Source of the DNA: an uncultured Bacteroides sp.
GTDB lineage: Bacteria > Bacteroidota > Bacteroidia > Bacteroidales > Bacteroidaceae
Length of the DNA: 64,000 bases
NCBI GenBank assembly: GCA_947646015.1
Contig: CANSEY010000017.1
Coordinates: 19,295-83,294, forward strand
Direction of reading: 5' to 3'
Numbering within the stretch: the stretch's first letter is position 1; each line of letters begins with the position of its first letter. The position numbers and the translations under genes were made by a program. The notes beneath the pieces were generated by a model. That model saw only the letters and a program-made list of their open reading frames with translations. It made no database searches and was not told where the DNA came from. Positions 5,062 to 26,290 of this stretch are shown piece after piece.

Positions 5062-6381
5062 CTATTTTTGTTCCATGAAAATTTTTCGTAACGGCATAAT
5101 CAATCTTTCCAGCAGGCGAAGATCATCCGTGATAATTTCCGCACTTCCCTTCATCTCACGAGTCAACGGCAAGGTCTTCCCATAATTGGTTGTCAGTCCG
5201 TCCGGTAAGGCAATATCGACCACATACATGCCTTCCGCCGTCGGCAGGGGCGATACACTTTTCACCTTCCCCTTTACATAGCCGAACTCCTGATCCGGAT
5301 AGTTGTTCAAACGCAGATTTACCCGCTGTCCGGCTTTCACTTTACCCGACCCCTGCAAAGGCAGCAACGCCGTCCCCACAGGCAAAGATTCTTCTTCGGG
5401 AGCAACCACAAACACTGTAGCCCCCGATTCCACGTACTGATTCACACTCCATACATTCAGGAAAGTAACCTTTCCCCCAACCGGACTTCGAAGCAGATAA
5501 CGCTGCTCCCAGGCGGTGAGCTGACTCTGCAACTGATCCGTAGCATTTCTCAGATTCACGGCCTGTGTCTGCTTCTCCTCAAACGCCTGTTTCTCCAGAT
5601 CGAGCAATGTCTCTTCCGATTGTTCTATCTGCATATCCACCTGAGTTAACTGCATGCGGGCCGACTCCCTTGACTGAAGACTTTGCAGGTAGCGACTCCC
5701 AGACTGTTCAAACTCCGTAATAATCATCGCCTGGCGATGATAGAGAATTGAATCTCGCGTATACGAAGCATGAGCCAGGGCATACTCTTTCTCTATCAGA
5801 AAATACTGGCTCCGAACCTGACCATAATATTTCTTCTGAGTCTCCAAAAGTTCCCTCTGCGACTGTAACTTCTTTGCATAATACCCCAATTCATTCATAC
5901 GCACCATTTCGGAGAGAGTACTCACAAACGCCGCATAGGCCGACTGTATCTCTCCCAGCCGCCAGCGATCTGTTTCCGAATGTAGAAAAAGCCCTTTACC
6001 CGACTCAGGCGTATATCCTTCCTGTTTCCACTTCCGCATCCGCTCTTGCAAGGAGAATACATCCGACACACAAGCTGTATTCTCTATTGTCCCCAGATTC
6101 GTGTCGGGTCCCACCTCCTGCCCGTTTTGTACATACAGATTCTCCAGTCTTCCGGCTGCTTTGGCCACTACGTAAGCCGGAGGATCTTGTGTGCTTACCG
6201 TCACCTCCGCAGCAATCACATCCGGATATTTAAACCAATAGCTTCCGGCAACCAATGCCACCACTATGACAAACAGCACCGTAATGCCACTGCGAAGAAT
6301 CCATGCCGGAACACGATTCATCACTTCCTGCACCTCTTCGCTACGAAGCTCGATCTCTTTATGTGTGTGCTCCTTTTCCAT
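5062..6381 (-). CDS. HlyD-family membrane fusion protein (secretion adaptor)
   Basis: 439-residue periplasmic adaptor that would link the neighbouring ABC exporter to an outer-membrane channel. One N-terminal membrane segment (about 31-50, GITVLFVIVVALVAGSYWF) is followed by a biotinyl-lipoyl-like half motif (AAGRLENLYVQNGQEV). Next comes a long alpha-helical hairpin (about 130-300, rich in Gln/Glu/Arg), then the returning lipoyl/beta-barrel part (LLRSPVGGKVTFLNVWSVNQ). It starts 2 nt after the ABC transporter stop, so the two are surely co-transcribed. This pairing is standard for export of double-glycine-leader peptides in Bacteroidetes. No outer-membrane partner is encoded nearby. Confidence 0.93.
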   Translation of the reverse strand: MEKEHTHKEIELRSEEVQEVMNRVPAWILRSGITVLFVIVVALVAGSYWFKYPDVIAAEVTVSTQDPPAYVVAKAAGRLENLYVQNGQEVGPDTNLGTIENTACVSDVFSLQERMRKWKQEGYTPESGKGLFLHSETDRWRLGEIQSAYAAFVSTLSEMVRMNELGYYAKKLQSQRELLETQKKYYGQVRSQYFLIEKEYALAHASYTRDSILYHRQAMIITEFEQSGSRYLQSLQSRESARMQLTQVDMQIEQSEETLLDLEKQAFEEKQTQAVNLRNATDQLQSQLTAWEQRYLLRSPVGGKVTFLNVWSVNQYVESGATVFVVAPEEESLPVGTALLPLQGSGKVKAGQRVNLRLNNYPDQEFGYVKGKVKSVSPLPTAEGMYVVDIALPDGLTTNYGKTLPLTREMKGSAEIITDDLRLLERLIMPLRKIFMEQK

Positions 6382-6383
6382 AT

Positions 6384-8594
6384 CTAACTTCCTAATTCCA
6401 ACTGATTCTTCACCAACTGATAATACAATCCTTTCTTTTCCGTCAGTTCCCGGTGGGTTCCCTCTTCGGCTACAGCACCCCTATCCAGCACCACGATCTT
6501 ATCCGCATCACGAACCGTACTCAAACGGTGTGCCACTACCACAACCGTCTTACCACGATAGAACGTGTGCAGATGCTCCATAATCTCGCGTTCATTGTTG
6601 GCATCCAATGCATTCGTCGCCTCATCGAAAAACAGGAACTCAGGATTTTTATAAACAGCGCGGGCTATCAGCAGGCGTTGACGCTGTCCCTGGCTGATGC
6701 CGTTTCCCTCCATGCCGATCTTCGTATTATACCCCAAAGGAAGAGAATCGATGAAGTCACGAATGTTGGCCACTGTCACCGCATGGCGAAGGCGCTCCAC
6801 ATCCACCTGTTCCTCCCCCACGGCAATATTATTTGCAATCGTGTCAGAGAAGATAAAGCCATCCTGCATCACCGAACCGCTCTTCGCACGCCAGAGGTGC
6901 GGATTTACCACATCCAGAGGGGTCTCACCTATCTTGATATCCCCCTTATTCGGAGTATAAAAGCCAAGCATCAGCTTGATCAGCGTAGTCTTACCGCTAC
7001 CGCTCGCACCCACAATCGCCGTCACCTTGTGTTCGGGTATGTTCAGGTTCACATCATTCAGCACATAGTCACGATCCGCACCGTCATAACTGAACGAGAG
7101 ATTCTCGATACGTATATCACGCCGTTCCGGAAGAACCGTCAGCTTAGAGGCAATATCCTGCTCTTCATCCTTCTGTCCATGAATCTCGTTCAGGCGCTCC
7201 AGACTGATCTTCGCATCCTGCAACTGCTGTGCAAAACCGATAAAAGAACCGATCGGACCGCTTAACTGACCGATAATATACGTCAGTGACATCATCATAC
7301 CCAACGTCATATTTCCCTCCACAACCGATTTAGCAGCAATAAAAGAGATGACAATATTCGTAGTCTGATTAAAAAAGACAGAACCCACCTGTTGCACCTG
7401 TCCCAGTGCCAGACCTTTTACGCTGATCTTGAAAAGTTTCACCTGAATACGTTCCCACTGCCAGCGTTTTTGTTTTTCACAGTTGTTCAGTTTGATCTCC
7501 TGCATGGCAGTCACCAACTGTATCAAACTACTCTGTTCGCCCGCCGCCTGGGCAAAACGGCGGATATCCAATTCGCGCCGGTACTTCATAAACACAAGAA
7601 TCCAGCAGATATAGAGTGAATTGCCCACCAGAAAGATAGCAAGAATACCCAGATTGTAATAAGCCAGCACAAAAGCAAAGATAAAGAAGTTCACAAAAGA
7701 GAAAAGCGTACTGATGGACGATCCCGTCAGAAAACTCTCGATACGTCCGTGATCGCCTATACGTTGCATAATGTCACCGATCATCTTCGTATCGAAATAA
7801 TGGAGCGGAAGCTTCATCAACTTCGCCAGGAAGTCAGAGATCAACGAAATATTGATACGCGTATTCATGTGAAGCATAATCCAGCTACGGATAAACTCGA
7901 CCGAAAGTTGTGAAACGGAAATCACCAGTTGTGAAATCAGGATCAGAGTGATAAAGTTCAGGTTACCGTCGCGAATACCCACATCCACCAATGACTGTGT
8001 CAGAAAAGGGAAAATAAGCTGCAACAAGCTCGCTGTCAGCATTCCCAGAATCAGTTGAATCAGTTGTTTACGATAAGGAGACAAATATTTAAGAAAGAAA
8101 CGAAGACTGCGACTGCCGGATTCTTCTTCGTCGCCCTGCCCTTGGAATTCCGGACCCGGTTCAAGCGCAAGTGCAGCCCCTTTCTCCTCTCCATTCACCT
8201 TAGTAGACAACCAGCATTTCTTAAACTCCTCCTCACTGTACGAAATCAACTGACGGGCGGGGTCGGCGATATAGAAACGGTAGCCGCTACGTTTCTTCTT
8301 TATATCATAACAGACCACGAAGTGATTCTGGTTCCAATGCAGAATGCAAGGCAACGGTACATCCTTCTTCAGTTGCTCCAAAGAGATGCGCACCCCCGAA
8401 GTACGGAAACCGATCGATTCCGCCGCATCGCTGATGCCCAGCATGGAAACTCCTTCACGGGTAATAAAAGAGCGTGCACGGAGAGTTTGCAGGGAGTAGC
8501 TCTTACCATAATACTTCGCAATCATGCGAAGGCAGGAAGGACCGCAATCCATAGCATCCAACTGGAGATAGTGAGGAAAAGAATTTAATTTCAT
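6384..8594 (-). CDS. Peptidase-containing ABC transporter (C39 peptidase, bacteriocin/RiPP exporter)
   Basis: 736-residue inner-membrane exporter that removes double-glycine leaders while transporting the peptide. The N-terminal C39 peptidase domain (about 1-135) has the catalytic Cys in MDCGPSCLRM, the His in QNHFVVCYDI and the Asp in YIADPARQLISY. A six-helix transmembrane domain follows (about 165-460), then the nucleotide-binding domain (about 495-736) with Walker A GASGSGKTT, signature ISQGQRQRLLIARAV (ISQGQ in place of LSGGQ) and Walker B FLFFDEATNALD. It is the only C39 transporter in the window, so it should process the GGG-ended leaders of the two precursors at 20.3 and 22.1 kb. Confidence 0.95.
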   Translation of the reverse strand: MKLNSFPHYLQLDAMDCGPSCLRMIAKYYGKSYSLQTLRARSFITREGVSMLGISDAAESIGFRTSGVRISLEQLKKDVPLPCILHWNQNHFVVCYDIKKKRSGYRFYIADPARQLISYSEEEFKKCWLSTKVNGEEKGAALALEPGPEFQGQGDEEESGSRSLRFFLKYLSPYRKQLIQLILGMLTASLLQLIFPFLTQSLVDVGIRDGNLNFITLILISQLVISVSQLSVEFIRSWIMLHMNTRINISLISDFLAKLMKLPLHYFDTKMIGDIMQRIGDHGRIESFLTGSSISTLFSFVNFFIFAFVLAYYNLGILAIFLVGNSLYICWILVFMKYRRELDIRRFAQAAGEQSSLIQLVTAMQEIKLNNCEKQKRWQWERIQVKLFKISVKGLALGQVQQVGSVFFNQTTNIVISFIAAKSVVEGNMTLGMMMSLTYIIGQLSGPIGSFIGFAQQLQDAKISLERLNEIHGQKDEEQDIASKLTVLPERRDIRIENLSFSYDGADRDYVLNDVNLNIPEHKVTAIVGASGSGKTTLIKLMLGFYTPNKGDIKIGETPLDVVNPHLWRAKSGSVMQDGFIFSDTIANNIAVGEEQVDVERLRHAVTVANIRDFIDSLPLGYNTKIGMEGNGISQGQRQRLLIARAVYKNPEFLFFDEATNALDANNEREIMEHLHTFYRGKTVVVVAHRLSTVRDADKIVVLDRGAVAEEGTHRELTEKKGLYYQLVKNQLELGS

Positions 8595-9241: not shown

Positions 9242-9907
9242 TTAACAACCAACAGGTATTTCATAATCAAGACGATATAGTTCTTTTATCTTTGCTATCT
9301 GTTTTTCATCCTTCAGTTCAAACCGGACAGATGTGGCATTTGCCTTTTCTTCCGGCATATCCACTCCCCTCTCGGCTAAAAAACGGTTCAACTTGCTGAG
9401 AGGTACAATACAGTCCACATCAGCAGAAGTATAAAAATCAGATTGCCTGCGTATATGTTCATCCTGCCACAACGGATTTGCCTTCCCCAATTCAAACTCA
9501 ACGAACGAAAGAAAGCGTTCAAAAGAACAATCCTGATACAGATTACACATGTACATGTATTGATTGAAGGTACGTTCAAGTATAAAATATTTATAAGCAG
9601 AAACCAGCCTTTCTACCGGATCCCTCCAAACCGCTACCTTCAAATACGATTTATGCTCCCTTTCATAACCAGACATCTCAGAAACCGGTACCAAAAAACG
9701 TTCTGGTTTTACCCGGGCGATATAAAAATGAGTCTGATCTTCGGTATCAGGAATCATACCTGCTGACGCATAAATAGCTATGTTTTCCAAAAAAGTAAGT
9801 CCACATTTCGAAATAAGGACAAAAGCCATACGATGCTTCTCTACAAGACAAAAGTTGCATCCGAAGAAGTCTAATGGTGGTTTGTTTAGCATTGTAATAT
9901 CTTTCAT
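9242..9907 (-). CDS. Sulfotransferase family protein
   Basis: 221 residues. Two motifs fit PAPS-dependent carbohydrate sulfotransferases (sulfotransferase family 2): FVLISKCGLTFLENIA near residue 30 is a degenerate 5'-phosphosulfate loop, and VAVWRDPVERLVSAYKYF near residue 92 is a clear 3'-phosphate loop (RDPxxRxxSxY). It would move sulfate from PAPS to a sugar hydroxyl. It follows a GT2 and a fucosyltransferase and precedes a LanC-like gene by 12 nt, so the likely substrate is the glycan made by this module. The 5' loop has Cys-Gly-Leu where Gly-Cys/Thr-Ser is common, which lowers certainty about activity. Start could also be M6. Confidence 0.75.
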   Translation of the reverse strand: MKDITMLNKPPLDFFGCNFCLVEKHRMAFVLISKCGLTFLENIAIYASAGMIPDTEDQTHFYIARVKPERFLVPVSEMSGYEREHKSYLKVAVWRDPVERLVSAYKYFILERTFNQYMYMCNLYQDCSFERFLSFVEFELGKANPLWQDEHIRRQSDFYTSADVDCIVPLSKLNRFLAERGVDMPEEKANATSVRFELKDEKQIAKIKELYRLDYEIPVGC

Positions 9908-9974: not shown

Positions 9975-10970
9975 TCATCCTTCCATCGTTTGGAGCTGGT
10001 CATAATACAGTTTCATCCTGTTGAGGATTTCCTCACTATACCATCTCCCAAGAGACTCTTGCCGCCTGAGTTCCTCACAAACACGAAGCATCTCTCCCGC
10101 CCTATCGTACAAAGTTGTATAAGTTCCGTCCGGATGCAATGTACAGGCAGTAGAATATATCTGCAACAGCCTTACATAGAGTGCTTCCTTTGCCTCTCTA
10201 TATTTTTTCTCAAACAAGTGCTTACGGCTATATTCCAGTAACTTCTCAATAATCAATTGAATGGAAGCAATCCGCCTGCCCGCTGCCGTCGCCGTCATAA
10301 TCGATCCTTCCCGTTGCCGGTAATAATAAAAATCAATATCGGCAACCGTTATTTTTTGAGCGGTTGTCAGCACCTGAGGAGTCCATAATTCATCTTCATG
10401 AACCAACCCCGGTTCAAAGCGAAATCCATTCTGTTCAATAAAATCCCTCCTATATAAATAATTGTATACCATGGGGACATAACACCTGCAATCCATCACT
10501 CTTGAAAAATATGTACTACCGGACACTACGGTGCCTGTCGCAAACAACTCTCTGCCCCTTCTTTCCCAACTTTGCACCTGTCCATCGGCATGCACCGCCA
10601 GTGTGTTTCCCGAAACAATATCAGTACGGGTCTTCGCTGCAATAGCACATAACACCTGCAAAGCATTCTCTGCCAGCCAGTCATCACTGTCCAGAAATGC
10701 CAGATAATGCCCGGAAGCATGTTCCATTCCGGTATTTCGTGCAGCAGAGAGCCCTTGATTCTCCTGTTCCACATAAACGAAACGAGCATCCTTACCCGCA
10801 TACTCCCGCAGCAACCTCCCGGAATTATCCGTCGATCCGTCATTCACCAAAATGATCTCAATATCCGTTAAAGTCTGCTTCTCTAAAGAGTGCAGACATT
10901 CCGCCAGAAAAGGTTCCGTATTATAGACCGGAACCACCACCGAAACTACCGGTCTTTTTACCTCTTTCAT
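9975..10970 (-). CDS. Glycosyltransferase family 2
   Basis: 331 residues from the ATG at 10970, which overlaps the stop of the upstream fucosyltransferase as ATGA. The open frame runs upstream to 11081, but the GT-A fold begins only at VVSVVVPVYNTEPFLAECLH right after this ATG, so 10970 is preferred. Nucleotide-sugar binding motifs are ILVNDGSTDNSG and the DxD-like YLAFLDSDDWLAENAL, both in the first 110 residues. The C-terminal 120 residues are helical, as in capsule and LPS GT2 enzymes. Donor and acceptor cannot be told. The ATGA overlap indicates translational coupling with the fucosyltransferase. Confidence 0.9.
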   Translation of the reverse strand: MKEVKRPVVSVVVPVYNTEPFLAECLHSLEKQTLTDIEIILVNDGSTDNSGRLLREYAGKDARFVYVEQENQGLSAARNTGMEHASGHYLAFLDSDDWLAENALQVLCAIAAKTRTDIVSGNTLAVHADGQVQSWERRGRELFATGTVVSGSTYFSRVMDCRCYVPMVYNYLYRRDFIEQNGFRFEPGLVHEDELWTPQVLTTAQKITVADIDFYYYRQREGSIMTATAAGRRIASIQLIIEKLLEYSRKHLFEKKYREAKEALYVRLLQIYSTACTLHPDGTYTTLYDRAGEMLRVCEELRRQESLGRWYSEEILNRMKLYYDQLQTMEG

Positions 10971-11857
10971 ATCCCTCCCAATTTTAGTTCGTGTATTTTT
11001 TGGCAAAGCCTGATTAACGGATTGCTCCGGACTTGCTCTAACTTTTTTGTAAACGACAATAATAAAGGCCGTTTCCTCCATGCATAAAAACGTTCATACA
11101 ATGCCTCGTCATCATAGCATTGATTCATAAAAGCGGCTACTCCCTCGGGAGAATCGAAAGTACAAATATCCAGAAAACAATTTTCTCCCGGAGCAAATTC
11201 CCGAATATTGGGAGCTCCCAGATAGACCGGAACAGTACCGGCCAACAAAGGATTGAAAAACTTTTCTGTCACATAATCCTTCCCTATCGCATTCTCAAAA
11301 CTTATCACAAACTGATAATCCCCGATCACACTAAGAAGTGTATCCCGTCCCCGATCCTCAACAGGTAATTCACAATTACGGTATAGTTTCCCATACGAAT
11401 CGATGTCGGTATACTGCATCAATTCCTTAAGATACTCTTGTCGGTGACTCCGGTTCATATCACTCGAAATAAACATACATGCCTTCTTCTTATAAGGCTT
11501 TTCCCTCCGTGCCGTAACCAGCATCTTCCCATAATCCGGTCCATAATAAGGATACACAATATCATCCTCCTGATGATACCCCATCCATAAGTCAAAACTC
11601 TCTCTGAACTCGGGATCCTTCGTCCAACTATAATTCTCTTCACATTCCAGACTCCATCCCACCCAAAGCTGTCCTTCCCGCTTATCGATTTCATCCTCCA
11701 TCACCGAAGGCAAATCGGGCAAATGGAAAACCACGGCATCCGCCTTTGCAAGGAGGTTTCGATCAGTCGTTATCACACAGCCTCCAGGTAAATCTTCCTT
11801 TCGGAACTCGAGTGGAAATCCCCACATCGTATTATAAAAAAGAATCAATATATCCAT
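10967..11857 (-). CDS. GT10 family (alpha-1,3/1,4-) fucosyltransferase
   Basis: 296 residues. The C-terminal half has the GT10 donor-binding signature: FENAIGKDYVTEKFFNPLLA followed by GTVPVYLGAPNIREFAPG (about residues 186-223). The N-terminal acceptor half includes WVGWSLECEENYSW. GT10 enzymes transfer fucose from GDP-fucose to GlcNAc or Glc, as in Lewis-type epitopes. B. fragilis is known to fucosylate surface glycans and glycoproteins. Here the gene is embedded in a RiPP locus and coupled to a GT2 by an ATGA overlap. No GDP-fucose synthesis gene is in the window. The family is certain; the linkage and acceptor are unknown. Confidence 0.9.
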   Translation of the reverse strand: MDILILFYNTMWGFPLEFRKEDLPGGCVITTDRNLLAKADAVVFHLPDLPSVMEDEIDKREGQLWVGWSLECEENYSWTKDPEFRESFDLWMGYHQEDDIVYPYYGPDYGKMLVTARREKPYKKKACMFISSDMNRSHRQEYLKELMQYTDIDSYGKLYRNCELPVEDRGRDTLLSVIGDYQFVISFENAIGKDYVTEKFFNPLLAGTVPVYLGAPNIREFAPGENCFLDICTFDSPEGVAAFMNQCYDDEALYERFYAWRKRPLLLSFTKKLEQVRSNPLIRLCQKIHELKLGGI

Positions 11858-14392: not shown

Positions 14393-15064
14393 TTAAAGCC
14401 CGGTTTCAATATAATGTTCAGCCAGTCTCCAGTCCGCTTCTTCATCGACATCTATCATCCCTGCAGGACCAACCTCCACCACCTTCACAACTCCCGAAAG
14501 AAGCTGCCCGGAGTCCAGTATTCTTCCCACCGTAGAAGCATAGAAAGCTCCCGACTCTATCAGAAAACCTTTGTACTCCTGTCGGCGAGGTTTAGTTTCG
14601 AATGAATAGTCCAAAGGTCTCCCCTCATCACTCCAACGAAACTTCTTCAAACGGCAACAGGCAACATAGGAATCCGCCTCCCCCCTTTTCATCTCTTCTA
14701 CAAGCCCCCTTAGTTCTTGTGCAGTCGTAAAAGGAGAAGTAGCCTGTAACAAAATAAAATCATCATTCCGGTCCGGCTTACGATAATTAAGATATTCCTG
14801 TACAACTTCCAGGCTGGAAGCCTCATCCCTTGCACTCCACTCACTGCGCCTGAATATCTGTACAACTCCTTTGTAACGGCCTCGTATCAGACTCTCCATT
14901 TCATCACAATTGGTCGCTACACATACCTCGTCCGCTATGCCGGAAGCAAGGATGGTATCGATAATCCAACATACCAGAGGTTTATCCCCCAGCAGACGCA
15001 GGTTCTTACCGGGAATACCTCTACTCCCTTTGCGAACCGGAACAAAACAGAAAGTACGATTCAT
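14393..15064 (-). CDS. CMP-sugar synthetase (acylneuraminate cytidylyltransferase family)
   Basis: 223 residues. The N-terminal CTP-binding motif reads FVPVRKGSRGIPGKNLRLLG, typical of NeuA/PseF/LegF enzymes, with LLQATSPFTTAQEL near residue 105 and a conserved acidic C-terminal MIDVDEEADWRLAE that supplies a metal ligand. It would activate a nonulosonic acid (sialic-, pseudaminic- or legionaminic-type) or related acid sugar with CTP. No synthase for such a sugar is encoded in the window, so the sugar must come from elsewhere. It is the first gene of the sugar module, directly downstream of the three maturases, and marks the visible change from AT-rich to more GC-balanced sequence. Confidence 0.85.
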   Translation of the reverse strand: MNRTFCFVPVRKGSRGIPGKNLRLLGDKPLVCWIIDTILASGIADEVCVATNCDEMESLIRGRYKGVVQIFRRSEWSARDEASSLEVVQEYLNYRKPDRNDDFILLQATSPFTTAQELRGLVEEMKRGEADSYVACCRLKKFRWSDEGRPLDYSFETKPRRQEYKGFLIESGAFYASTVGRILDSGQLLSGVVKVVEVGPAGMIDVDEEADWRLAEHYIETGL

Positions 15065-17583: not shown

Positions 17584-18903
17584 TTATATTAAATTTCTTT
17601 GTTTTGCCATTTCTATCACAAAAGAAGACAAACTGTATTCAACGTTATCATATACACAAGTAAGCTGTTTACAATTTATAAGTGCATCGTAATTTTTTTG
17701 TATACATGGTCCCATACACAAAGGTAAAACTCGACAATTTTCACAACGTTCATTCTCAAATGTAGCCTTTACAAACATCTTACTCAATATTCCATCGTTC
17801 CAATCAATCTCTCCAGATTTTAACAAATGGCCAAGAGTTAGTTCTTCCCCATAATCACGTGCTGTACATTTAAAAATTCTACCATCGTAATTGACAACAT
17901 AATGATTGATACTATCCGCATAACAACACTTATATCTAAATGGCCTATATGCCCAAAAACGCGAACGAAAACCAGCCTTCTCAAATTCAACTTTTGCCTT
18001 CTCTAATAACTTTCGCATTTCTTCTGTACATGAAATCTGCCACACTCTCTGAAAATCTACAGTAATGCACTTTATACTTTTTTCCGTAAAATCATTTATT
18101 ATATCTTTTATATTCTTCAAAGTTTGTTTATCATAATTTACACGCAAACAAATTGAAACATCTGGAATTACCTCAGAAAGCAAATTAATATTGTCAACCA
18201 CATCTCTATAAGTACCATGTTTATCAGAATAACGTTTAATCAGGTTCTGGCGGCACTCATTACCATCAATAGATATCTGAAAGAAATCAAAGTTCATGTC
18301 CTTCATATATCGAATTCTATCTTCACTCAATAAAGTAGCATTAGTAGTAATTTGTTGCCTAAATTTCACATTATTCTGTAATAAAATTGGGAATACTGAA
18401 TCTGATATCTTTTTGATTACTTCATCAAAATACATTAGGGGCTCTCCACCAAACCAATCCAATAAAATTGAATTTGCTTTTTTTTGTGTCACTAATAAAT
18501 TAATGTGCTTAATCAAATTATCAACTATTTCATCGCTCATTCGTTCTCTATCATATTTTGCCCCAGCATATGCAACAGAACAATACCAGCACTTTAAATT
18601 ACAATCTAAAGTCGGATTTATTGTAAGATGATAATCCCGATTCATAAATATACACCGCTTATTTTGTAATTTCAAATACGCCAACTCATCAAAATCTGGA
18701 CTTATAATAAATCCTGACCTCTGAAAAGCAGAATACAATTCAGGAAATTTCTGTCGAAATGTAGGCAAATGTTCCATCAAAGTCTCAATTATAGAATAAT
18801 CCTTAAGACTAATTGGTAGTATCCTGTTAGTAAGCGAATTATAGAGCAGGATTCCATTATAGTATTCTATTTCAATATTGTATCTACTAGCTTTATCATT
18901 CAT
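17584..18903 (-). CDS. Radical SAM/SPASM peptide maturase (first of three)
   Basis: 439 residues. An N-terminal segment of about 90 residues, probably a precursor-recognition region, precedes the cluster motif HLTINPTLDCNLKCWYCSVA at about 100 (CxxxCxxC) and the SAM motif LLDWFGGEPLMYFDEV near 146. SPASM cysteines appear as YKCCYADS, IFKCTARDYGEE and CENCRVLPLCMGPC close to the end. It is the first modification enzyme after the second precursor/protease cassette. Together with the next two genes it forms an uninterrupted maturase block. The peptide residue modified cannot be predicted from sequence alone. Confidence 0.9.
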   Translation of the reverse strand: MNDKASRYNIEIEYYNGILLYNSLTNRILPISLKDYSIIETLMEHLPTFRQKFPELYSAFQRSGFIISPDFDELAYLKLQNKRCIFMNRDYHLTINPTLDCNLKCWYCSVAYAGAKYDRERMSDEIVDNLIKHINLLVTQKKANSILLDWFGGEPLMYFDEVIKKISDSVFPILLQNNVKFRQQITTNATLLSEDRIRYMKDMNFDFFQISIDGNECRQNLIKRYSDKHGTYRDVVDNINLLSEVIPDVSICLRVNYDKQTLKNIKDIINDFTEKSIKCITVDFQRVWQISCTEEMRKLLEKAKVEFEKAGFRSRFWAYRPFRYKCCYADSINHYVVNYDGRIFKCTARDYGEELTLGHLLKSGEIDWNDGILSKMFVKATFENERCENCRVLPLCMGPCIQKNYDALINCKQLTCVYDNVEYSLSSFVIEMAKQRNLI

Positions 18904-18933: not shown

Positions 18934-20190
18934 TCAATCACCTTGAACCTCTTTTTTATCAATAACCACCGGTATCTTATAAGATTTACCTTGACGGACA
19001 ATATCGTATATCAATGTGTCTTGCCGGCTTAGCTCCGCATCCTCTTCCAAAGAGATCATTTTAATAGGAATTTCATTTATAGCAATAATTTCATCACCTT
19101 CTAACAAACCGGCTTTTTTAATATAATTACTCTCATAATCGGCAATTTTAGTAATAATAATTTTTCCATGGCTATTCATACGGGATGACATGTGGAATCG
19201 TTTCTTCCGAGGGTTGACCACTCGTTCGTAATTCTTTATTGGCTGCAAACCTAATCTTTGTGATTTCATGTCGAAAAAAACATTAAATCTTTTAAGAAAA
19301 TTCAGACCAATAAGATAATCACAAGGTACTTGATTAGGTTGATCAAATATATAAATCCGCAAAGAATCAAGTTGTATGCCACTAAACAAAGTAACATTTA
19401 CATTATGATGACTATAATATCCAGATGGTGCCTGCGTCCAAACGGCATTCTTTTTCTTAGAAAAAAAGGACAATTCAGAAGCTTGAGCCATCAGAGCTAT
19501 GTCTTGTGGCATACCTGTATCTACAAGATAAGTATGAGTAAGCATCAGTGTGTCTCCATCAGCACATCTAATATTTAAAGGCAGATTAACATAAAAAAGT
19601 GAGCTTTTATCATTTCCTCTTACAAAAGGAATCAGAATACAATTCTTAGGCATAATAAAATCTTGAAATGAATGGATAACCATATAATTATGTTCAAAGT
19701 TAAACTCCCATATATTAACAGTATCATTTTGTGGAATATTAAACAAACCATCTGATTGAGTACCTCCCATGTAATCTCTCCAATTATAAACTAACATTTT
19801 ATCATATATCAAATTGGAATTCCCTACTTTTATAGTCGGAACAATTGTATACATAGATGCGGGCATACGTAATACAGACCATGCACACCCATATGGAGCA
19901 ATAGTGTCAGGAGACAAATTCGATAAGATAGAAGAGTGAGCTGAACAAAAAGTAGAGTCAACAATAAAAGCTCCCAAAGAAGCCCCACTATCAAATGCCA
20001 AATTTGAAACAATGCTATCATTAAATAACACGGGAAGCACTATCTTTCTATCTAAAGAATCAATTGTAAAGTAAGTTCTTGCATCTCTTTTATTCCCTTT
20101 GGATATTTTCGTACAACTACCTAAAACAGTAGCTTGCAAAAAAAGAAAAACAATACACTTTATCAGCCCATTGCCTATAATTAACTTCAT
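18934..20190 (-). CDS. Retropepsin-like aspartyl protease/PDZ lipoprotein, copy 1
   Basis: 418 residues from ATG 20190; the frame opens at a TTG at 20214. The signal peptide ends in a lipobox LGSC, so the protein should be a lipoprotein. Two aspartyl-protease-type half sites are visible, LAFDSGASLGAFIVDS near residue 65 and YLVDTGMPQDIALM near 220, as in pepsin/retropepsin-like repeats. A PDZ domain follows (about 325-410) with IADYESNYIKKAGLLEGDEI. It lies directly downstream of precursor 1 and may process the exported peptide or a target, or confer immunity. That pairing repeats in copy 2, which argues for a functional link. Its last 384 bp are duplicated at 28559-28942. Confidence 0.82.
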   Translation of the reverse strand: MKLIIGNGLIKCIVFLFLQATVLGSCTKISKGNKRDARTYFTIDSLDRKIVLPVLFNDSIVSNLAFDSGASLGAFIVDSTFCSAHSSILSNLSPDTIAPYGCAWSVLRMPASMYTIVPTIKVGNSNLIYDKMLVYNWRDYMGGTQSDGLFNIPQNDTVNIWEFNFEHNYMVIHSFQDFIMPKNCILIPFVRGNDKSSLFYVNLPLNIRCADGDTLMLTHTYLVDTGMPQDIALMAQASELSFFSKKKNAVWTQAPSGYYSHHNVNVTLFSGIQLDSLRIYIFDQPNQVPCDYLIGLNFLKRFNVFFDMKSQRLGLQPIKNYERVVNPRKKRFHMSSRMNSHGKIIITKIADYESNYIKKAGLLEGDEIIAINEIPIKMISLEEDAELSRQDTLIYDIVRQGKSYKIPVVIDKKEVQGD

Positions 20191-20312
20191 ATTCTTTAAT
20201 TTAGCTTTCCACAAGAGTAATACTGCTGAAAGTTAATTTCAGCAGTATTACAAAATAAAGGACTACGCTCAATTGTTCATACAAACAAATATAAACGCCC
20301 AATCAATTATTT

Positions 20313-20624
20313 TCATATACCACACGAGTGTCCTTGAGTCGCCCCACAAAGAGCATCTTGAGGCATAACAGGAAAATCCGGAAATTTCGGAAATTCCGGT
20401 TTGGGGTCAGTAGTAGAACAACATGGATGAGAACCATCTGATGTATACCCATGAGCATTATTGGCACTATCATTAGCACTAGTACTAGAGCCACCGGGTT
20501 TACCTTCATAATTGCAACCACATTGGCAGCACCCAGGAGTACCACCTCCCAAAACACGACACATCTCACGTTCATTCAATTCAGCTTTTGAAGCTTCATT
20601 CAGTTTCAGTTTTCTTAATTTCAT
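20313..20624 (-). CDS. RiPP precursor peptide 1, GG-Bacteroidales family
   Basis: 103 residues. The charged leader (about 1-28) is MKLRKLKLNEASKAELNERE followed by MCRVLGGG, the double-glycine type cut by C39 peptidases (TIGR04149-like, from memory). The core starts TPGCCQCGCNYEGKPGG. It continues with a Ser/Thr/Asn/Asp-rich stretch with HPCCSTTD, a Pro/Phe-rich part (PEFPKFPDFPVMPQ) and DALCGATQGHSCGI. There are nine cysteines in all, eight of them after the GGG. The Ser/Thr-rich middle is a plausible glycan acceptor. Residues 1-79 match precursor 2, and the upstream 80 bp are also near-identical. Confidence 0.88.
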   Translation of the reverse strand: MKLRKLKLNEASKAELNEREMCRVLGGGTPGCCQCGCNYEGKPGGSSTSANDSANNAHGYTSDGSHPCCSTTDPKPEFPKFPDFPVMPQDALCGATQGHSCGI

Positions 20625-20767: not shown

Positions 20768-22006
20768 TCAATCACCTTGTATTTCTTCTTTATTAACAGC
20801 TACAACTATTTTAAGAATCTTCTCTTTACGAATAACTTCATATAATAATGTATCTTGCTTTTCAAACAAACGATGATTTTTATAAAGATAATCTTCATAA
20901 TTTTTTCCATTCACAGTTTTAATTTCATCGCCTTCTCTTAACCCAGCAGCTTTATAATAATTGTCCTTAGAATCAGCGACCCTAGTAATGACCCACCTCC
21001 CATATCTATTTTTTTCAACCAAAATATGAAATCGCTGATGCAAAGGATTAACAACACGAGTAAAATTAGGTATTGGCTGAAAACCAATTCTTTGATGTTT
21101 CATATCAAAGAAAACATTAAATCTTTTAAGAAAATTCTGCCCAATCAAATAATTAGATGGCGCTCTATTAATAAAATCAAAAGTATAAACTCGTAATGAA
21201 TCCATTCTCAAAGTATCAGCTAAAATAGCATCTACAGGACAATAGCGATGATATCTATTTAGATATTTAGTCCAAACAACATCCTCCTGTTTATTAAAGA
21301 AAGAAAACTCATTAGCTTCTTGCATTAAGACGATATCCCAAGCCATTCCCGTATCTATCATGAACATACGATTTATCATTAATGTGTCACTACTAGCACA
21401 TTCCATCTTAATAGGTAATCTGACATAGAGTAAATTAGGATATTCTTTTTTTCTAACTAATGGAAATATCAAACTATTATCAGGCATTCGATAATTCTGC
21501 GCCAAATGAATCTCCATATAATTATGCTCAAAGTTCAGCTCCCACACATGCATAGTATCGTTAGGAGGGATATTAAACATTCCTTCTGAAGAACTATTCA
21601 TATACCATTTCCAATTCATAATTTGAGTAACATCATATTTCAAAGACACCTTTCCAACCCTAACAATTGGGGCATTAGAATAAATAGAACAAGTGACAAG
21701 AAAGTTAGCCCAACCAGAGCCATTTCGTAATTGCGCATCTGAAAACAAACGATGTTTAATACTAGAATGTGTTGCACAAAACATCGAGTCTAACACAAAT
21801 TGTCCTCCAGTATCAAATCCTAAGCGAGCCGTGATACTGTCATTCAATTGTACAGGTAAAACTATCTGCCTATCTTTTGGATTTATACAAAAATATACCT
21901 TTCCCCCACCATTTATAATCTCTGTATATTGTTGAGGATAACCACAACTCACACAAATTATGAAAAACAAAAATACAGAACACAATCCTTTATTCATTGG
22001 AAACAT
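20768..22006 (-). CDS. Retropepsin-like aspartyl protease/PDZ lipoprotein, copy 2
   Basis: 412 residues, clearly paralogous over its full length to copy 1 (same order of motifs, shared LKRFNVFFDMKHQRIGFQPI). The signal peptide carries a lipobox ICVSC; M4 (MNKGLCSVF) is an equally good start. Half sites are RLGFDTGGQFVLDSMFC and FMIDTGMAWDIVLMQEANEF. The PDZ part contains VADSKDNYYKAAGLREGDEI. It starts 63 nt after precursor 2. Divergence from copy 1 is much greater than between the two precursor genes, so the precursors have been homogenised or duplicated later than the proteases. Secreted, probably outer-membrane anchored. Confidence 0.82.
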   Translation of the reverse strand: MFPMNKGLCSVFLFFIICVSCGYPQQYTEIINGGGKVYFCINPKDRQIVLPVQLNDSITARLGFDTGGQFVLDSMFCATHSSIKHRLFSDAQLRNGSGWANFLVTCSIYSNAPIVRVGKVSLKYDVTQIMNWKWYMNSSSEGMFNIPPNDTMHVWELNFEHNYMEIHLAQNYRMPDNSLIFPLVRKKEYPNLLYVRLPIKMECASSDTLMINRMFMIDTGMAWDIVLMQEANEFSFFNKQEDVVWTKYLNRYHRYCPVDAILADTLRMDSLRVYTFDFINRAPSNYLIGQNFLKRFNVFFDMKHQRIGFQPIPNFTRVVNPLHQRFHILVEKNRYGRWVITRVADSKDNYYKAAGLREGDEIKTVNGKNYEDYLYKNHRLFEKQDTLLYEVIRKEKILKIVVAVNKEEIQGD

Positions 22007-22069: not shown

Positions 22070-22363
22070 TTAAAAATGTCCACAAAGAGCATCTTGGGGA
22101 TTCCAAAATGGCGGTGGTGTTATTTCAGGAAATTCCGGTTTGGGGTCAGTAGTAGAACAACATGGATGAGAACCATCTGATGTATACCCATGAGCATTAT
22201 TGGCACTATCATTAGCACTAGTACTAGAGCCACCGGGTTTACCTTCATAATTGCAACCACATTGGCAGCACCCAGGAGTACCACCTCCCAAAACACGACA
22301 CATCTCACGTTCATTCAATTCAGCTTTTGAAGCTTCATTCAGTTTTAGTTTTCTTAATTTCAT
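22070..22363 (-). CDS. RiPP precursor peptide 2, GG-Bacteroidales family
   Basis: 97 residues. Identical to precursor 1 through the leader, GGG cleavage site, CCQCGC cluster and Ser/Thr-rich region. It then diverges to PEITPPPFWNPQDALCGHF. Both peptides keep Pro-Gln-Asp-Ala-Leu-Cys-Gly near the end, so that element is probably recognised or modified. Precursor 1 has an extra tail after it (ATQGHSCGI). Likely fate: modification by the three maturases at 15-19 kb, cleavage by the C39 domain at 6.4-8.6 kb, export. Biological activity (antibacterial, signalling or other) is not evident. Confidence 0.88.
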   Translation of the reverse strand: MKLRKLKLNEASKAELNEREMCRVLGGGTPGCCQCGCNYEGKPGGSSTSANDSANNAHGYTSDGSHPCCSTTDPKPEFPEITPPPFWNPQDALCGHF

Positions 22364-22641: not shown

Positions 22642-23871
22642 TTAACTATAAAAAGACTCAAATGCCATCCTCATTTTTTCTAATGAAAAAGCATCTTTAT
22701 ATCGACACCTATTTAACTTACCAACCTCTCTCGCCCAACAATCATCCGTTACTATTTTCAATAAACATTTCGACAGTTCTTCAACTGATAACCTTAATTC
22801 ATTTTGATCTTCCTTTAATATCAATCTGCACTCTACATTTTGATGATGAATCATTTCACTCAATCCTGTGGTATTAGTGATAATTAATGGTAATCCATGC
22901 ATCATCATTTCTATGGCTACATAACTGCATTGCTCATGAAAAGACGGCATCACTCCAACATCTGCAATTTGATAAAATTCATATAATTTCTGTTTACTAA
23001 TTTTCCCTATAAAAGTAATCCTACTCCAAATGTCTGCAGACATCTGTAAATACCTACTATAATTCCCGTCTCCCACTATTAACAAACGAGTGTTCGAACT
23101 CTTTTTTATCACCTTTGCGAAAGCTTCTATCAAATAGTCAACCCCTTTTATATCATCCAAACGCCCTACAAATAGAATTAATTTCTCTCCTTCTCCAAAA
23201 AATAAATCTCTTTTTCTTTGCATTCTCTCCACTTCATCCAAGAAGATAGCCTGATCAATTAAACCATTGTATATCAACGTTAGTTTACATTCTTCAATTC
23301 CATAAAATTCATTCAGCAACATCTTAGTATATTGAGCCAAGCATATTATCCTATCTACTTTTCTGTAAAAAGATACTTCTTGCTTATATTCGTCATATAT
23401 GTATTTTTCTTCCTCAGTTCTATCGTTCTCAGCTTTATCCAAAACGGTTTGTAACCTCTTTATATTCCCTTTCAAAGTGAAGCACCAGTTCAAATAATGT
23501 AAAGTCAACACAAATTGGCTGGTAGGATATATTTTCTTCAACAAGTCAACCAATGGTTCATGATGTAAATAATTAAAATGAAATACATTATCTTCACTTG
23601 AATCTACATACAATGCCAACAAGAAAGCAACACTTCTATAATATCGTTGAATTTCTTTCTCACTCCTCCAATCATACACTTTAGGAAAAGTTAGATAACG
23701 AACATTATTATCTTTTTTTTCAGTCAGTATCCCATCCTCTGAGTTCATACTAACTACAGTCAAACGCAAAGAATCAATACTGCTAAGACAGTTTATAACT
23801 TGAATTATATATGTCCCAATACCATATTGTGCCGCACGACTATCACTATTTATCAAATATATATGCCTCAT
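22642..23871 (-). CDS. GT4-type glycosyltransferase of rSAM/RiPP clusters
   Basis: 409 residues with a GT-B fold. The N-terminal MRHIYLINSDSRAAQYGIGT is the acceptor-domain signature of a family that occurs beside GG-Bacteroidales systems (TIGR04157, from memory). The C-terminal glycosyl transferases group 1 domain shows LILFVGRLDDIKGVDYLIEA, LLIVGDGNYSRYL and the ExxxxxxE-like VGVMPSFHEQCSYVAIEMMM. It would use an NDP-sugar in the cytoplasm. Its ATG overlaps the stop of the upstream LanC-like gene (ATGA), and the precursor genes follow directly. This makes the peptide itself a candidate acceptor. Confidence 0.88.
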   Translation of the reverse strand: MRHIYLINSDSRAAQYGIGTYIIQVINCLSSIDSLRLTVVSMNSEDGILTEKKDNNVRYLTFPKVYDWRSEKEIQRYYRSVAFLLALYVDSSEDNVFHFNYLHHEPLVDLLKKIYPTSQFVLTLHYLNWCFTLKGNIKRLQTVLDKAENDRTEEEKYIYDEYKQEVSFYRKVDRIICLAQYTKMLLNEFYGIEECKLTLIYNGLIDQAIFLDEVERMQRKRDLFFGEGEKLILFVGRLDDIKGVDYLIEAFAKVIKKSSNTRLLIVGDGNYSRYLQMSADIWSRITFIGKISKQKLYEFYQIADVGVMPSFHEQCSYVAIEMMMHGLPLIITNTTGLSEMIHHQNVECRLILKEDQNELRLSVEELSKCLLKIVTDDCWAREVGKLNRCRYKDAFSLEKMRMAFESFYS

Positions 23872-24518
23872 CGCAATAAGTATTTTAATCCTTCAACCCA
23901 CAACAAAGCTTCTTTCTTCTCTCCGCCAGTTCTCTGTGACGTTATCTTTCCCAGAACAACGAGATACCAATCATCTATTTGTTTACCCACTAAATAGTCT
24001 AACAATAAAGAAATTCCAGGATGGCAGACTTTATTCGGAACATTCTCACAAACACCTCTTAAATCATCCAAATACATCTTATCGAATGGTTTCTGCAAAT
24101 ATCTCTCAGATGACAATAAGCGTATTAACACATACCACGCCAACCCTTCTATCCCCGTATCAAATGAATAGTCTTTTACACGTCGTAAGTCACGTTCCAT
24201 TATTTTATTATCAAGTTCTGTTAAGATATCATTAGAACCACATTCAACAAATCCTTTCTGCATAAAATACTCTAATCCCCATCCAATTCCTAATAAGCCA
24301 TTTCGAATCCCCCATGGAGTATCTATTCTAATATCATCATACACATCCCCAATCAGTTCATTTGCATAGTCACTATAAAGCGAATCTCCACAAAAATGAG
24401 CATAATGAAAAAAGAAAAGTGAAATGCCTATTTTGCCACGCAATAGCCCTAAATCCTTACAACAGGCACTATATAGTATCTGATAATTAGCTATTTGTCT
24501 CAATAATTGTCCATTCAT
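23868..24518 (-). CDS. Short LanC-like protein, copy 2
   Basis: 216 residues from ATG 24518, chosen because copies 1 and 3 have about 20 residues before the GLxxGKxG motif; the frame is open to an ATG at 24563 that would overlap the upstream gene by 32 nt. It shows GLLRGKIGISLFFFHYAHF, then GLLGIGWGLEYFMQKGFVEC, then GIEGLAWYVLIRLL. The C-terminal 60 residues are shared with copy 1 in layout (short helices, one LLLDYLVGK). It is joined to the following glycosyltransferase by ATGA. No zinc ligands are visible. Role unknown; possibly a scaffold for the glycosyltransferase it is coupled to. Confidence 0.62.
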   Translation of the reverse strand: MNGQLLRQIANYQILYSACCKDLGLLRGKIGISLFFFHYAHFCGDSLYSDYANELIGDVYDDIRIDTPWGIRNGLLGIGWGLEYFMQKGFVECGSNDILTELDNKIMERDLRRVKDYSFDTGIEGLAWYVLIRLLSSERYLQKPFDKMYLDDLRGVCENVPNKVCHPGISLLLDYLVGKQIDDWYLVVLGKITSQRTGGEKKEALLWVEGLKYLLR

Positions 24519-24531
24519 CTCAACTATATTT

Positions 24532-25299
24532 TTACCAGGATTTAACATATGCACGTAATTCATTCTGACCCATGCTACAAACTTTTATAAATTCCATTCG
24601 ATTAATAAAAGCTAACTTTTCTATAGAATATCTGGAGTTCTCTCCCCTAGGATGCCATAAGTGGTATAATGGTCCTCCATTTGTCCAATGTACAGATTCT
24701 CCCAATATTTCCATCCTTCGAATACGCTCAGCATCTTCAGGTCCCCAACTGATAAAACGTTCATTATCTCCCCCATATCTCAAATACTTTTCACGATCTA
24801 CAACAAAAACTCCCCCACAGGAAGGACGCCACATCAAACGAGCATACATATCATCATGCGAAACTAAATGATCATACCTTTGTCCAGAAAGTATATATGC
24901 TTCACTTTGTTTTTTTGAAAGCATTTTTACCACTCCATTATATGGTATACTCATCACATATTTTCGTTCTATAATTGCTTGTATTGAGGCCTCCAACTGC
25001 GACAAAGAAAATATAATATCAGCATCCCAAATAGCAACTATAGGAGTAGAAATTTCTCTTAATAATAAGTTAACATACCTCGTTTTGTGATAAACTAAAT
25101 TTTCATCACGTTCATAAGTATAAGTAATTTTACTACAGATATCATCAGGGAACTGACACTCTTCACTTCCTGCATCCCAAACATGTACCCTCATCCCAGA
25201 CGAGGATATATAGTGTAATAAGGCTAAAAGATTTCTCTTCCTCTCCCAACTGTCTATCCTCACAGGAATTCCAATAGTAATTTGCTCCAAATAACTCAT
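24532..25299 (-). CDS. Glycosyltransferase, GT-A fold (GT2/GT7-like)
   Basis: 255 residues. The N-terminal ITIGIPVRIDSWERKRNLLA matches GT2-like starts, and the metal-binding DxD is in TPIVAIWDADIIFS near residue 95. The C-terminal GGVFVVDREKYLRYGGDNER followed by FISWGPEDAERIRRMEILGE is the acceptor/metal motif of galactosyltransferase-C (GT7, chondroitin polymerase-like) domains. A retained WxxED-like element (SWGPEDAE) suggests it is active. Its ATG overlaps the stop of LanC-like copy 3 (ATGA), repeating the LanC-like/glycosyltransferase pairing seen at 23.87 kb. Confidence 0.85.
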   Translation of the reverse strand: MSYLEQITIGIPVRIDSWERKRNLLALLHYISSSGMRVHVWDAGSEECQFPDDICSKITYTYERDENLVYHKTRYVNLLLREISTPIVAIWDADIIFSLSQLEASIQAIIERKYVMSIPYNGVVKMLSKKQSEAYILSGQRYDHLVSHDDMYARLMWRPSCGGVFVVDREKYLRYGGDNERFISWGPEDAERIRRMEILGESVHWTNGGPLYHLWHPRGENSRYSIEKLAFINRMEFIKVCSMGQNELRAYVKSW

Positions 25300-25901
25300 A
25301 GATTGTACCTATTCATACATTTTTCAATTAAAACTGATACTTTTGTCCGATAAAAACCTGTAGGGTATAAGTCAAACAAAAAATCAAGTAAATCATCAAT
25401 AGATTCGTTTGTATATTCCAATCTTTCCTCCAACCAATCAATCAAATAAATAAGATACTCTTTCAGGAAAGCACTTGAAACCGTATCACCTTTCAAAAAT
25501 GTTGGAATAATCCTAATTAGAATATATCGTCCTAAACCTACAATTCCGTTATTTAATGAAAGTCCCGACATACCATAGGCATGTATACAGCGTGCAGCAC
25601 ATTGATCTATATCCTTTAAGACTTCATCAGCATCACCTTCCATATAACTATTTTGAATCAGATATTCAATCCCCCAACCAATCCCCCATAAACCACTACC
25701 AAAAGAAATAGGTATAGACGAATCAAGATGTTCATAAATCTCATCAAGGAGTTCACAACCAACATCTTCACATGTCAACTCACCGGAAAGGCGTGCATAG
25801 CGAAAAAGAGCAATGGCGATCCCCATTTTTCCGTTAATAAGTCCGAGGCAGGACGTTCTACGTCCTGCCTGAACTAACTCCCTAACCAAAGAGTTGTACA
25901 T
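25296..25901 (-). CDS. Short LanC-like protein, copy 3
   Basis: 201 residues. Motifs: GLINGKMGIAIALFRYARLS near residue 20, SFGSGLWGIGWGIEYLIQNS near 67, then GDADEVLKDIDQCAARCI, and GIVGLGRYILIRIIP near 118. GLxxGxxGxAxxLxxYA is close to the first repeat of LanC cyclases, which gives the best support for that relationship. It is the first biosynthetic gene after the DUF3244-like gene (14-nt gap) and is translationally coupled to a glycosyltransferase. Copies 1 to 3 share motifs but little else, so they are old duplicates. Confidence 0.62.
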   Translation of the reverse strand: MYNSLVRELVQAGRRTSCLGLINGKMGIAIALFRYARLSGELTCEDVGCELLDEIYEHLDSSIPISFGSGLWGIGWGIEYLIQNSYMEGDADEVLKDIDQCAARCIHAYGMSGLSLNNGIVGLGRYILIRIIPTFLKGDTVSSAFLKEYLIYLIDWLEERLEYTNESIDDLLDFLFDLYPTGFYRTKVSVLIEKCMNRYNL

Positions 25902-25915
25902 AATGAACTACTCTA

Positions 25916-26290
25916 TTATTCCAACCGGAAATCTCCATAAACATCAGTTCCACGCGGAGTAGTAAACTTTAAGGAATACTCACCCATGCCCCAAAGCGTC
26001 AGATCAAAAGTCTCTGTATCTCCAGAAGATACCGACAATGACTTCTGTATCACCATCACTCCATCTTTATAGAGTGTAATGGTCATATCCATTATAGGAG
26101 CTTCAAAACTAAGAACCAAGAATTCAGAGCCTGAAATTTCAGCTCTAATGGGAATATCTTCAACGATCGATTTCTGGAGCTTATCATTAAACAAACCTTT
26201 TAAATCAACTGGACTCGTGCTTCCGTTTGTCTTTGCCATCATTTGAAGCGACAAGACTACAAGTAATAATGTAAATAGCATACTTTTCAT
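25916..26290 (-). CDS. Small secreted DUF3244-like protein
   Basis: 124 residues from ATG 26290, chosen because a good promoter ends just upstream; the longer frame to 26392 would start before the promoter. The signal peptide is MKSMLFTLLLVVLSLQMMAK. The mature part is a single beta-sandwich-like domain with IPIRAEISGSEFLVLSFEAP, MTITLYKDGVMVIQKSL and a terminal GEYSLKFTTPRGTDVYGDF. That pattern is common in Bacteroides DUF3244 proteins, which form Ig-like folds. It appears to be the first gene of the long RiPP transcription unit. Role unknown; an envelope accessory is likely. Confidence 0.7.
   Translation of the reverse strand: MKSMLFTLLLVVLSLQMMAKTNGSTSPVDLKGLFNDKLQKSIVEDIPIRAEISGSEFLVLSFEAPIMDMTITLYKDGVMVIQKSLSVSSGDTETFDLTLWGMGEYSLKFTTPRGTDVYGDFRLE

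What the first reader, a model, noticed from the sequence alone, without database searches (positions are those of the whole stretch)
5062..26290. Large GG-Bacteroidales RiPP locus that combines radical SAM, LanC-like and glycan-building genes
Seen: two GGG-leader precursors, three rSAM-type proteins, three LanC-like half proteins, C39 ABC exporter and HlyD, together with five glycosyltransferase genes (one two-domain), a CMP-sugar synthetase and a sulfotransferase on one strand, mostly within a few bases of each other. Established: GG-leader/rSAM/C39 systems occur in Bacteroidales, sometimes with a glycosyltransferase. Inference: the product may be a radical-SAM-modified, glycosylated and possibly fucosylated, sialylated or sulfated peptide. 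I know of no characterised product with that set.
Basis: partly seen in the sequence, partly recalled or inferred. Interest (0 to 1): 0.85.

Follow-up and report, generated by a model that had tools for sequence, protein, structure and literature searches.

The report
Gut-bacterium gene cluster for sugar-coated peptides
A gut Bacteroides carries a gene cluster that probably makes a small cross-linked peptide, builds a custom sugar chain onto it inside the cell and then exports it; the cluster type has been drawn in print before, but the link between its LanC-like proteins and its sugar-adding enzymes looks new.

Summary
In detail: 5062-26392 (- strand) encodes two GG-leader precursors, two radical SAM enzymes, a TIGR04150 'pseudo-rSAM' with intact CX3CX2C, three LanC-like proteins, five glycosyltransferase (GT) genes, a CMP-sugar synthetase, a sulfotransferase, C39 exporter and HlyD. 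The type is not new: NCBIfam names its core, and 'BGC5' (Fernandez-Cantos 2023, B. fragilis) very probably is this locus. New here: (1) The LanC-like proteins have a LanC fold without conserved zinc ligands, and 29 of 32 in related loci sit beside or are fused to a GT (like-for-like BLAST count of a GT as next gene: 22 of 32, against 12 of 635 other ORFs); they look like GT partners, not lanthionine cyclases. (2) The sugar block does not look like a capsule bystander: L074 has a fused GT/CMP-synthetase/methyltransferase in the same slot; GT10 genes cluster at such loci (3 of 9, expected 0.04); GT2 and sulfotransferase are under purifying selection; the fucosyltransferase is present/absent between strains. 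(3) Most precursors are followed by a secreted-type protein gene. Best model: a peptide cross-linked at CxC, glycosylated in the cytosol by LanC-GT pairs, extended, exported. No product has been observed; 'sialylated' is the weakest inference.

The parts
5062..6381 (-). HlyD membrane-fusion protein
   Evidence: PF13437 9e-13
6384..8594 (-). C39 peptidase ABC exporter (PCAT)
   Evidence: PF03412 2.2e-33, PF00005, PF00664
8630..9229 (-). LanC3, small LanC-like protein
   Evidence: 41% to LanC1 over 194 aa; LanM profile E 0.014; no Pfam hit
9242..9907 (-). sulfotransferase
   Evidence: PF03567 2.2e-13; dN/dS 0.07 against S82
9975..10970 (-). GT2 glycosyltransferase (mechanical ORF runs to 11081)
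   Evidence: PF00535 2.7e-38; start by S82 homologue and ATGA overlap
10967..11857 (-). GT10 fucosyltransferase, strain-variable
   Evidence: PF00852 4.8e-34; nearest PDB human-type FUT9, 9.9e-26; missing in S82
11907..14381 (-). two-domain glycosyltransferase (GT-B-like N part, GT2/CgtA-like C part)
   Evidence: weak profile hits; found in 2 of 393 genomes of the order, one of them this one
14393..15064 (-). CMP-sugar (nonulosonate-type) synthetase
   Evidence: PF02348 9.2e-19; nearest PDB CMP-Neu5Ac synthetase 1.8e-29
15078..16340 (-). TIGR04150 'pseudo-rSAM' with intact CX3CX2C and SPASM cysteines (TTG start at 16340; the S82 ORF corresponds to a start at 16319)
   Evidence: 510.6 bits; motif; S82 413 aa
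16333..17580 (-). TIGR04148 radical SAM peptide maturase
   Evidence: 621 bits, cut-off 300
17584..18903 (-). second radical SAM/SPASM enzyme (rSAM3)
   Evidence: PF04055 3.3e-18; all NCBIfam equivalog matches below cut-off; nearest PDB 5wgg, 6.7e-15 (the name CteB, thioether maturase, is recalled)
18934..20214 (-). lipoprotein-type protein with two D[S/T]G motifs and PDZ domain
   Evidence: PDZ 0.0038; motifs
20313..20624 (-). precursor peptide A1
   Evidence: first 78 aa identical to A2; identical protein in S82
20768..22006 (-). second D[S/T]G/PDZ-like lipoprotein-type protein
   Evidence: 45% to the first
22070..22363 (-). precursor peptide A2
   Evidence: TIGR04149 1.6e-15, 56.7 bits
22642..23871 (-). 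GT4 glycosyltransferase TIGR04157
   Evidence: 580 bits, cut-off 400
23868..24563 (-). LanC1, small LanC-like partner of the GT4 (4-bp overlap)
   Evidence: PF05147 2e-4, below cut-off; AlphaFold LanC fold
24532..25299 (-). GT7/GT2-like glycosyltransferase
   Evidence: PF02709 4.2e-7
25296..25901 (-). LanC2, small LanC-like partner of the GT7 (4-bp overlap)
   Evidence: PF05147 2e-4, below cut-off
25916..26392 (-). DUF3244 protein
   Evidence: PF11589 7.3e-11; also in 5 of 80 related loci
26484..28268 (-). TPR protein, possible membrane regulator
   Evidence: TPR hits; a two-component system lies in this stretch in S82
28988..36285 (-). array of five DUF5128 six-bladed beta-propeller proteins; possible extra peptide-partner genes

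Best explanation
A mosaic RiPP locus. A GG-leader precursor with a conserved CxCxC...NxxAN core is modified by two radical SAM enzymes plus the TIGR04150 protein, most likely by thioether or C-C links at the CxC cysteines. Glycosyltransferases, each working with a small zinc-less LanC-like protein that holds the peptide, put the first sugars on the core in the cytosol. The 9242-15064 enzymes lengthen and decorate the chain (CMP-activated sugar, hexose, fucose where the GT10 gene is present, sulfate). The C39 exporter then cuts at GGG and secretes the glycopeptide, which meets its cognate lipoprotein (D[S/T]G/PDZ) outside. Shown by sequence: gene content, order, LanC-GT pairing and fusions, recent exchange of the core and of part of the sugar block, purifying selection on GT2 and sulfotransferase. 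Inferred: link chemistry, sugar site, sugar identity, order of steps, roles of the lipoproteins.
Confidence: 0.52

Rival explanations
1. The 9242-15064 block is a hitch-hiking glycan cassette that decorates another acceptor (surface glycan or general O-glycan) and only sits in the RiPP island.
For: Higher GC (39-48% against 31-35% for most core genes); GT2 and sulfotransferase much older than the core in this place, and CMP synthetase/two-domain GT with four to seven times the core's dS; L074-like module rare.
Against: Same slot and fused module in L074; GT10 enrichment at such loci; no capsule genes among ten flanking proteins scanned and no flippase or ligase family hit in the locus; 13 bp between TIGR04150 gene and CMP synthetase.
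Confidence: 0.27
2. The sugars go onto the secreted partner (D[S/T]G/PDZ or propeller protein) or onto a host-directed coat, and the peptide is only cross-linked.
For: 37 of 47 precursors are followed by a gene for a mostly secreted-type protein; five beta-propeller genes next to the locus.
Against: GT-LanC pairs also occur where the partner is a beta-propeller (L045) or a Porph_ging-like protein (L025, L027, L078), so they do not track one partner type; no glycan-flipping gene in the locus.
Confidence: 0.1
3. The LanC-like proteins are catalysts, as lanthionine cyclases or as glycan-cutting enzymes (PMC10352776: likely 'more similar to endogluconases').
Against: No Cys or His among the columns conserved at 70% or more; no LanB/LanM dehydratase domain hit in the locus; fusion to GT4, GT2 and GT8 alike points to a binding role.
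Confidence: 0.1

Closest known systems
NCBIfam GG-leader rSAM cassette of Bacteroidetes (TIGR04149 target, TIGR04148 maturase, TIGR04150 pseudo-rSAM, TIGR04157 glycosyltransferase)
   Same: all four models over cut-off; one GT already tied to rSAM by its name (glyco_rSAM_CFB)
   Different: adds a second rSAM, three LanC-like proteins, four more GT genes, CMP-sugar synthetase, sulfotransferase
BGC5 of Fernandez-Cantos et al. 2023 (PMC10352776, B. fragilis)
   Same: two precursors each followed by a 'signaling protein', two rSAM, one pseudo-rSAM, three LanC-like, two sets of CAZymes, HK plus RR; S82 has the same locus with HK plus RR
   Different: authors report no transporter, whereas C39 and HlyD are here and in S82; neither strain matches BGC5 in full (this window lacks HK plus RR, S82 has one precursor). 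Authors set the LanCs aside; no LanC-GT link, mosaic or partner analysis in the text seen. I did not see their figure or supplement
TIGR04149/04148/04150 clusters of B. fragilis 3_1_12 and B. uniformis (PMC4573289, 2015)
   Same: precursor, lipoprotein, rSAM pair (3_1_12); precursor, rSAM pair, ABC exporter and HlyD-type protein (B. uniformis)
   Different: no sugar genes described in the passages seen; 'glycosyl' does not occur in the held text
Glycocins (peptide S/O-glycosylation, SunS)
   Same: peptide glycosylated in the cytosol before C39 export (recalled)
   Different: the GT2 here scores 23 bits on SunS TIGR04195 (cut-off 350); rSAM chemistry and a multi-enzyme sugar block added

Membership tests
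GG-leader rSAM RiPP cassette (TIGR04148/49/50) | precursor with TIGR04149 leader | tested here: met
   A2 56.7 bits, cut-off 25; A1 not scanned itself but its first 78 aa equal A2's
GG-leader rSAM RiPP cassette (TIGR04148/49/50) | TIGR04148 maturase and TIGR04150 partner adjacent | tested here: met
   621 and 511 bits; 8-bp overlap by the mechanical start, 13-bp gap by the start seen in S82
GG-leader rSAM RiPP cassette (TIGR04148/49/50) | C39 exporter with HlyD | tested here: met
GG-leader rSAM RiPP cassette (TIGR04148/49/50) | a cross-linked secreted product | not testable with these tools
   needs mass spectrometry
Lanthipeptide (class I-IV) | Ser/Thr dehydratase (LanB, LanM or kinase/lyase) | tested here: not met
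   no dehydratase hit among the 19 locus proteins scanned, only sub-threshold LanM/LanKC matches that fall on the LanC part of those models
Lanthipeptide (class I-IV) | LanC zinc ligands (Cys, Cys-His) | tested here: not met
   no Cys/His column conserved at 70% in 37 small LanC-like proteins; the same is reported for BGC3,4,5 in PMC10352776
LanC fold family | alpha/alpha toroid | tested here: met
Glycocin (SunS-type S-glycosyltransferase) | SunS-family GT | tested here: not met
   GT2 23 bits against cut-off 350
Capsule / O-antigen locus | flippase, polymerase, initiating sugar-phosphate transferase | tested here: not met
   none among Pfam hits (E up to 0.1) of the 19 true locus genes scanned; precursor A1 not scanned
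Sactipeptide / ranthipeptide | Cys thioether to alpha/beta/gamma carbon | not testable with these tools
   CxC in 48 of 49 cores is only suggestive

The most novel reading that the evidence does not exclude
Small zinc-less LanC toroids are a general peptide-docking partner of glycosyltransferases in Bacteroidota RiPP loci (serving GT4, GT2, GT7 and GT8 enzymes by pairing or fusion). Together with exchangeable sugar modules they let the cell build a strain-specific, possibly fucosylated and sulfated oligosaccharide directly on a radical-SAM-cross-linked peptide before C39 export, matched to a co-inherited secreted partner.
Probability: 0.4. Interest if true: 0.82.

Novelty: new variant of a known kind. 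Interest (0 to 1): 0.6.

Why it matters
If right, LanC-like proteins that have been set aside as false lantibiotic hits are glycosyltransferase partners, and gut bacteria of the B. fragilis group make glycopeptides whose sugar part differs between strains. That makes a testable set of new enzymes for sugar addition to peptides, and candidate signals or weapons in the human gut.

Tried and rejected
Lanthipeptide reading: rejected (no dehydratase hit, no conserved zinc ligands). Capsule reading: rejected as main reading (ten flanking proteins scanned). Plasmid carriage: megablast of 9242-23871 against plasmids gave no match. The Pfam/NCBIfam scans used 20303-20575, a wrong-frame ORF, for precursor A1; A1 was read in its true frame and was not scanned itself. 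AlphaFold of the D[S/T]G/PDZ protein failed outside the PDZ part (mean pLDDT 51), so 'aspartic protease' rests on motifs only and no fold search was run on it. PDB search for the two-domain GT gave nothing useful. Alignment A3 (LanC-GT fusion) was not used because GT rows were partly placed on the LanC part. Ser/Thr enrichment of cores: weak. Promoter pattern search upstream of precursors: nothing convincing; generic promoter and terminator scans near background (66 found, shuffles 53.7 sd 6.4; 14 found, shuffles 11.8 sd 4.0). Papers searched: (held open-access library only, no preprint server); no characterised product of this family was seen in those listings. Paper views: PMC10352776 outline, passages and section 3.2; PMC4573289 passages; PMC7268733 passages; all others only as listings. 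Pfam was run on chosen ORFs near LanC genes, not on all. One search kept the best 80 of at least 555 relatives, many on short contigs, so gene counts are lower bounds. One search listed 42 LanC matches outside this genome; 29 were fetched and counted.
Full report
WHAT IS THERE. The window is from a Bacteroides close to B. fragilis: 89 and 94% DNA identity to strain S82 in the two long pieces over 39251-50899. From 26392 down to 5062 on the - strand lie DUF3244, LanC2, GT7-like, LanC1, GT4 (TIGR04157), precursor A2, lipoprotein-type protein, precursor A1, lipoprotein-type protein, rSAM3, TIGR04148 rSAM, TIGR04150 protein, CMP-sugar synthetase, two-domain GT, GT10, GT2, sulfotransferase, LanC3, C39 exporter and HlyD. 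The flanks read or scanned are housekeeping genes (trpS and an OmpA-type gene, names from reading; mutL, OstA, SurA-type, IMPDH, recQ, clpX, trigger factor and two GTPases among ten proteins scanned; one of the ten had no hit). GC is 31-35% from 15078 to 24563 except the precursors (42-43%), 39-48% in the sugar block and 47-50% in the exporter, so the locus is a mosaic.

WHAT IS ALREADY KNOWN. NCBIfam names the core families. Fernandez-Cantos et al. 2023 describe BGC5, linked there to B. fragilis: two precursors each followed by a 'signaling protein', two rSAM, one pseudo-rSAM, three LanC-like proteins, two CAZyme sets, a histidine kinase and a response regulator. S82 carries our locus at the same chromosomal site with a histidine kinase and response regulator beside it. 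I infer that BGC5 is this locus; neither strain matches it in full, and I did not see the figure or the accession. They report no transporter and call the LanCs likely 'more similar to endogluconases'. A 2015 survey lists small forms in B. fragilis 3_1_12 and B. uniformis.

RELATED LOCI. A scan of the species-genome collection with the TIGR04148 alignment kept the best 80 loci of at least 555. By BLAST to window proteins (E 1e-4, best hit) they hold: TIGR04150 protein 77, C39 48, precursor 39, HlyD 27, beta-propeller 27, LanC-like 26, GT4 22, TPR 11, rSAM3-like 7, GT2 7, GT7 6, D[S/T]G/PDZ-like protein 5, DUF3244 5, GT10 3, two-domain GT 1, sulfotransferase 0. Many contigs are short, so these are lower bounds. 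Parabacteroides chinchillae (L018) and B. stercorirosoris (L020) share the precursor-lipoprotein-rSAM3-rSAM4148-TIGR04150 order; the two rSAMs are 69-75% identical to the window's, TIGR04150 62 and 49%.

SUGAR BLOCK. In 32 loci where C39 lies downstream of the TIGR04150 gene, no ORF is listed between them in 16 (gaps up to 1.4 kb among these), GT genes lie in the gap in L025, L041, L074, L075 and L076, and the other 11 have other or unscanned ORFs; in 5 more loci C39 lies upstream. L074 has one 1523-aa protein with two-domain-GT-like, CMP-sugar synthetase, methyltransferase and GT2 parts. L026 has GT7-GT2, GT10, GT2 and two GT32-type genes in a row upstream of its rSAM, the last four overlapping. 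In the 69 other genomes that hold these loci, 9 GT10 genes exist and 3 lie inside the loci (L026, L060, L069; places matched by contig arithmetic), expected 0.04, P about 8e-6 with rounded genome sizes. A CMP-synthetase is near the core only in L074 by BLAST; the family search of 47 genomes was not mapped place by place. The two-domain GT was found in 2 of 393 genomes of the order, one being this genome; the other match covers only the C-terminal domain.

STRAIN COMPARISON. Against S82 the DNA identity per 500 bp is 0.84-0.98 in 1-11000 and 0.96-1.00 in 12001-25877 where aligned. dS: trpS .66, ompA .31, HlyD .68, C39 .61, LanC3 .41, sulfotransferase .30, GT2 .40; two-domain GT .072, CMP synthetase .080; TIGR04150, rSAM4148, rSAM3, lipoprotein, precursor A1 .011-.022; GT4 .032, LanC1 .027, GT7 .012, LanC2 .064; first beta-propeller .089. 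So the core, the GT-LanC pairs and, perhaps in another event, the CMP synthetase and two-domain GT were exchanged recently between the two lineages, while exporter, LanC3, sulfotransferase and GT2 diverged like the chromosome. dN/dS is .07 for sulfotransferase and GT2 and .15 for the two-domain GT; few changes make the values for core genes uninformative, and LanC2 (.64), CMP synthetase (.38) and LanC3 (.22) are less constrained. S82 lacks the GT10 gene by a clean indel (11006/11856) and lacks the second precursor-lipoprotein unit.

PRECURSORS AND PARTNERS. In 49 precursors (47 plus two here, found by similarity to the window's, which favours likeness) C35 is 100%, C37 96%, C33 84%, N51 84% and N55 88% conserved, past the GG site. 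Cysteine-to-Asn or nearby links are a testable guess. Of 47 precursors, 37 are followed by a gene for neither rSAM nor exporter, 9 by rSAM4148, 1 by C39. The 37 are 17 beta-propellers, 15 Porph_ging/PNGase-F-II-N-like, 4 like the window's lipoprotein (two D[S/T]G motifs in L018 and L054, one in L020, none in L021) and 1 unknown (families beyond the scanned examples are by BLAST clustering; signal peptides were read by eye). They could be immunity, processing or receptor proteins; the data do not decide. TIGR04150 proteins keep CX3CX2C in 34 of 73 cases, the window's included, and SPASM cysteines in 97%, so 'pseudo' does not fit half of the family, though the GGE-like motif here reads GGN (by eye).

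SUBSTRATES. APS kinase is present. NeuB is not found in this 74.7%-complete genome or in L074's, but is in S82. The CMP-sugar could come from uptake or another pathway.

VERDICT. Real, probably one functional locus, a new variant of a printed cluster type, with a new and well supported LanC-GT association (not seen in print, which cover the held library only).

Noticed in passing
window 28576-36285: Array of five DUF5128 beta-propeller genes with a 152-aa C-terminal fragment of the D[S/T]G/PDZ protein against the first; propeller genes and the fragment are also in S82. In relatives such propellers follow precursors directly.
   Followed up: partly
L009 (own genome, C10:59000-78900): Second TIGR04148 locus with GT4, LanC-like proteins, GT7-like and beta-propellers; S82 (L088) has a similar layout whose flanks are 94-98% identical while the rSAM part does not align.
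   Followed up: partly
L111, L113, L114, L121, L122: Recurrent 650-740 aa GT2-LanC fusions next to rSAM3-like radical SAM genes: another possible RiPP-GT cassette.
   Followed up: no
L065:2355-3935, L109:18-1463, L115:1997-3433: C39-VKOR-thioredoxin fusion proteins directly upstream of LanC-GT pairs, suggesting disulfide chemistry in some relatives.
   Followed up: no
L036:11249-13891, L078:5962-8631, L026:5854-8544: 880-896 aa proteins with a carboxypeptidase-regulatory-type domain (weak hits), perhaps outer-membrane proteins, within RiPP loci.
   Followed up: no
window 25916-28268 against L128:13101-15174: Regulatory stretch differs between strains: DUF3244 and TPR protein here, histidine kinase plus response regulator in S82.
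   Followed up: partly
L083:5191-7209: 672-aa ORF next to a LanC-like gene with GT32-type and Mur-ligase domains in one frame.
   Followed up: no
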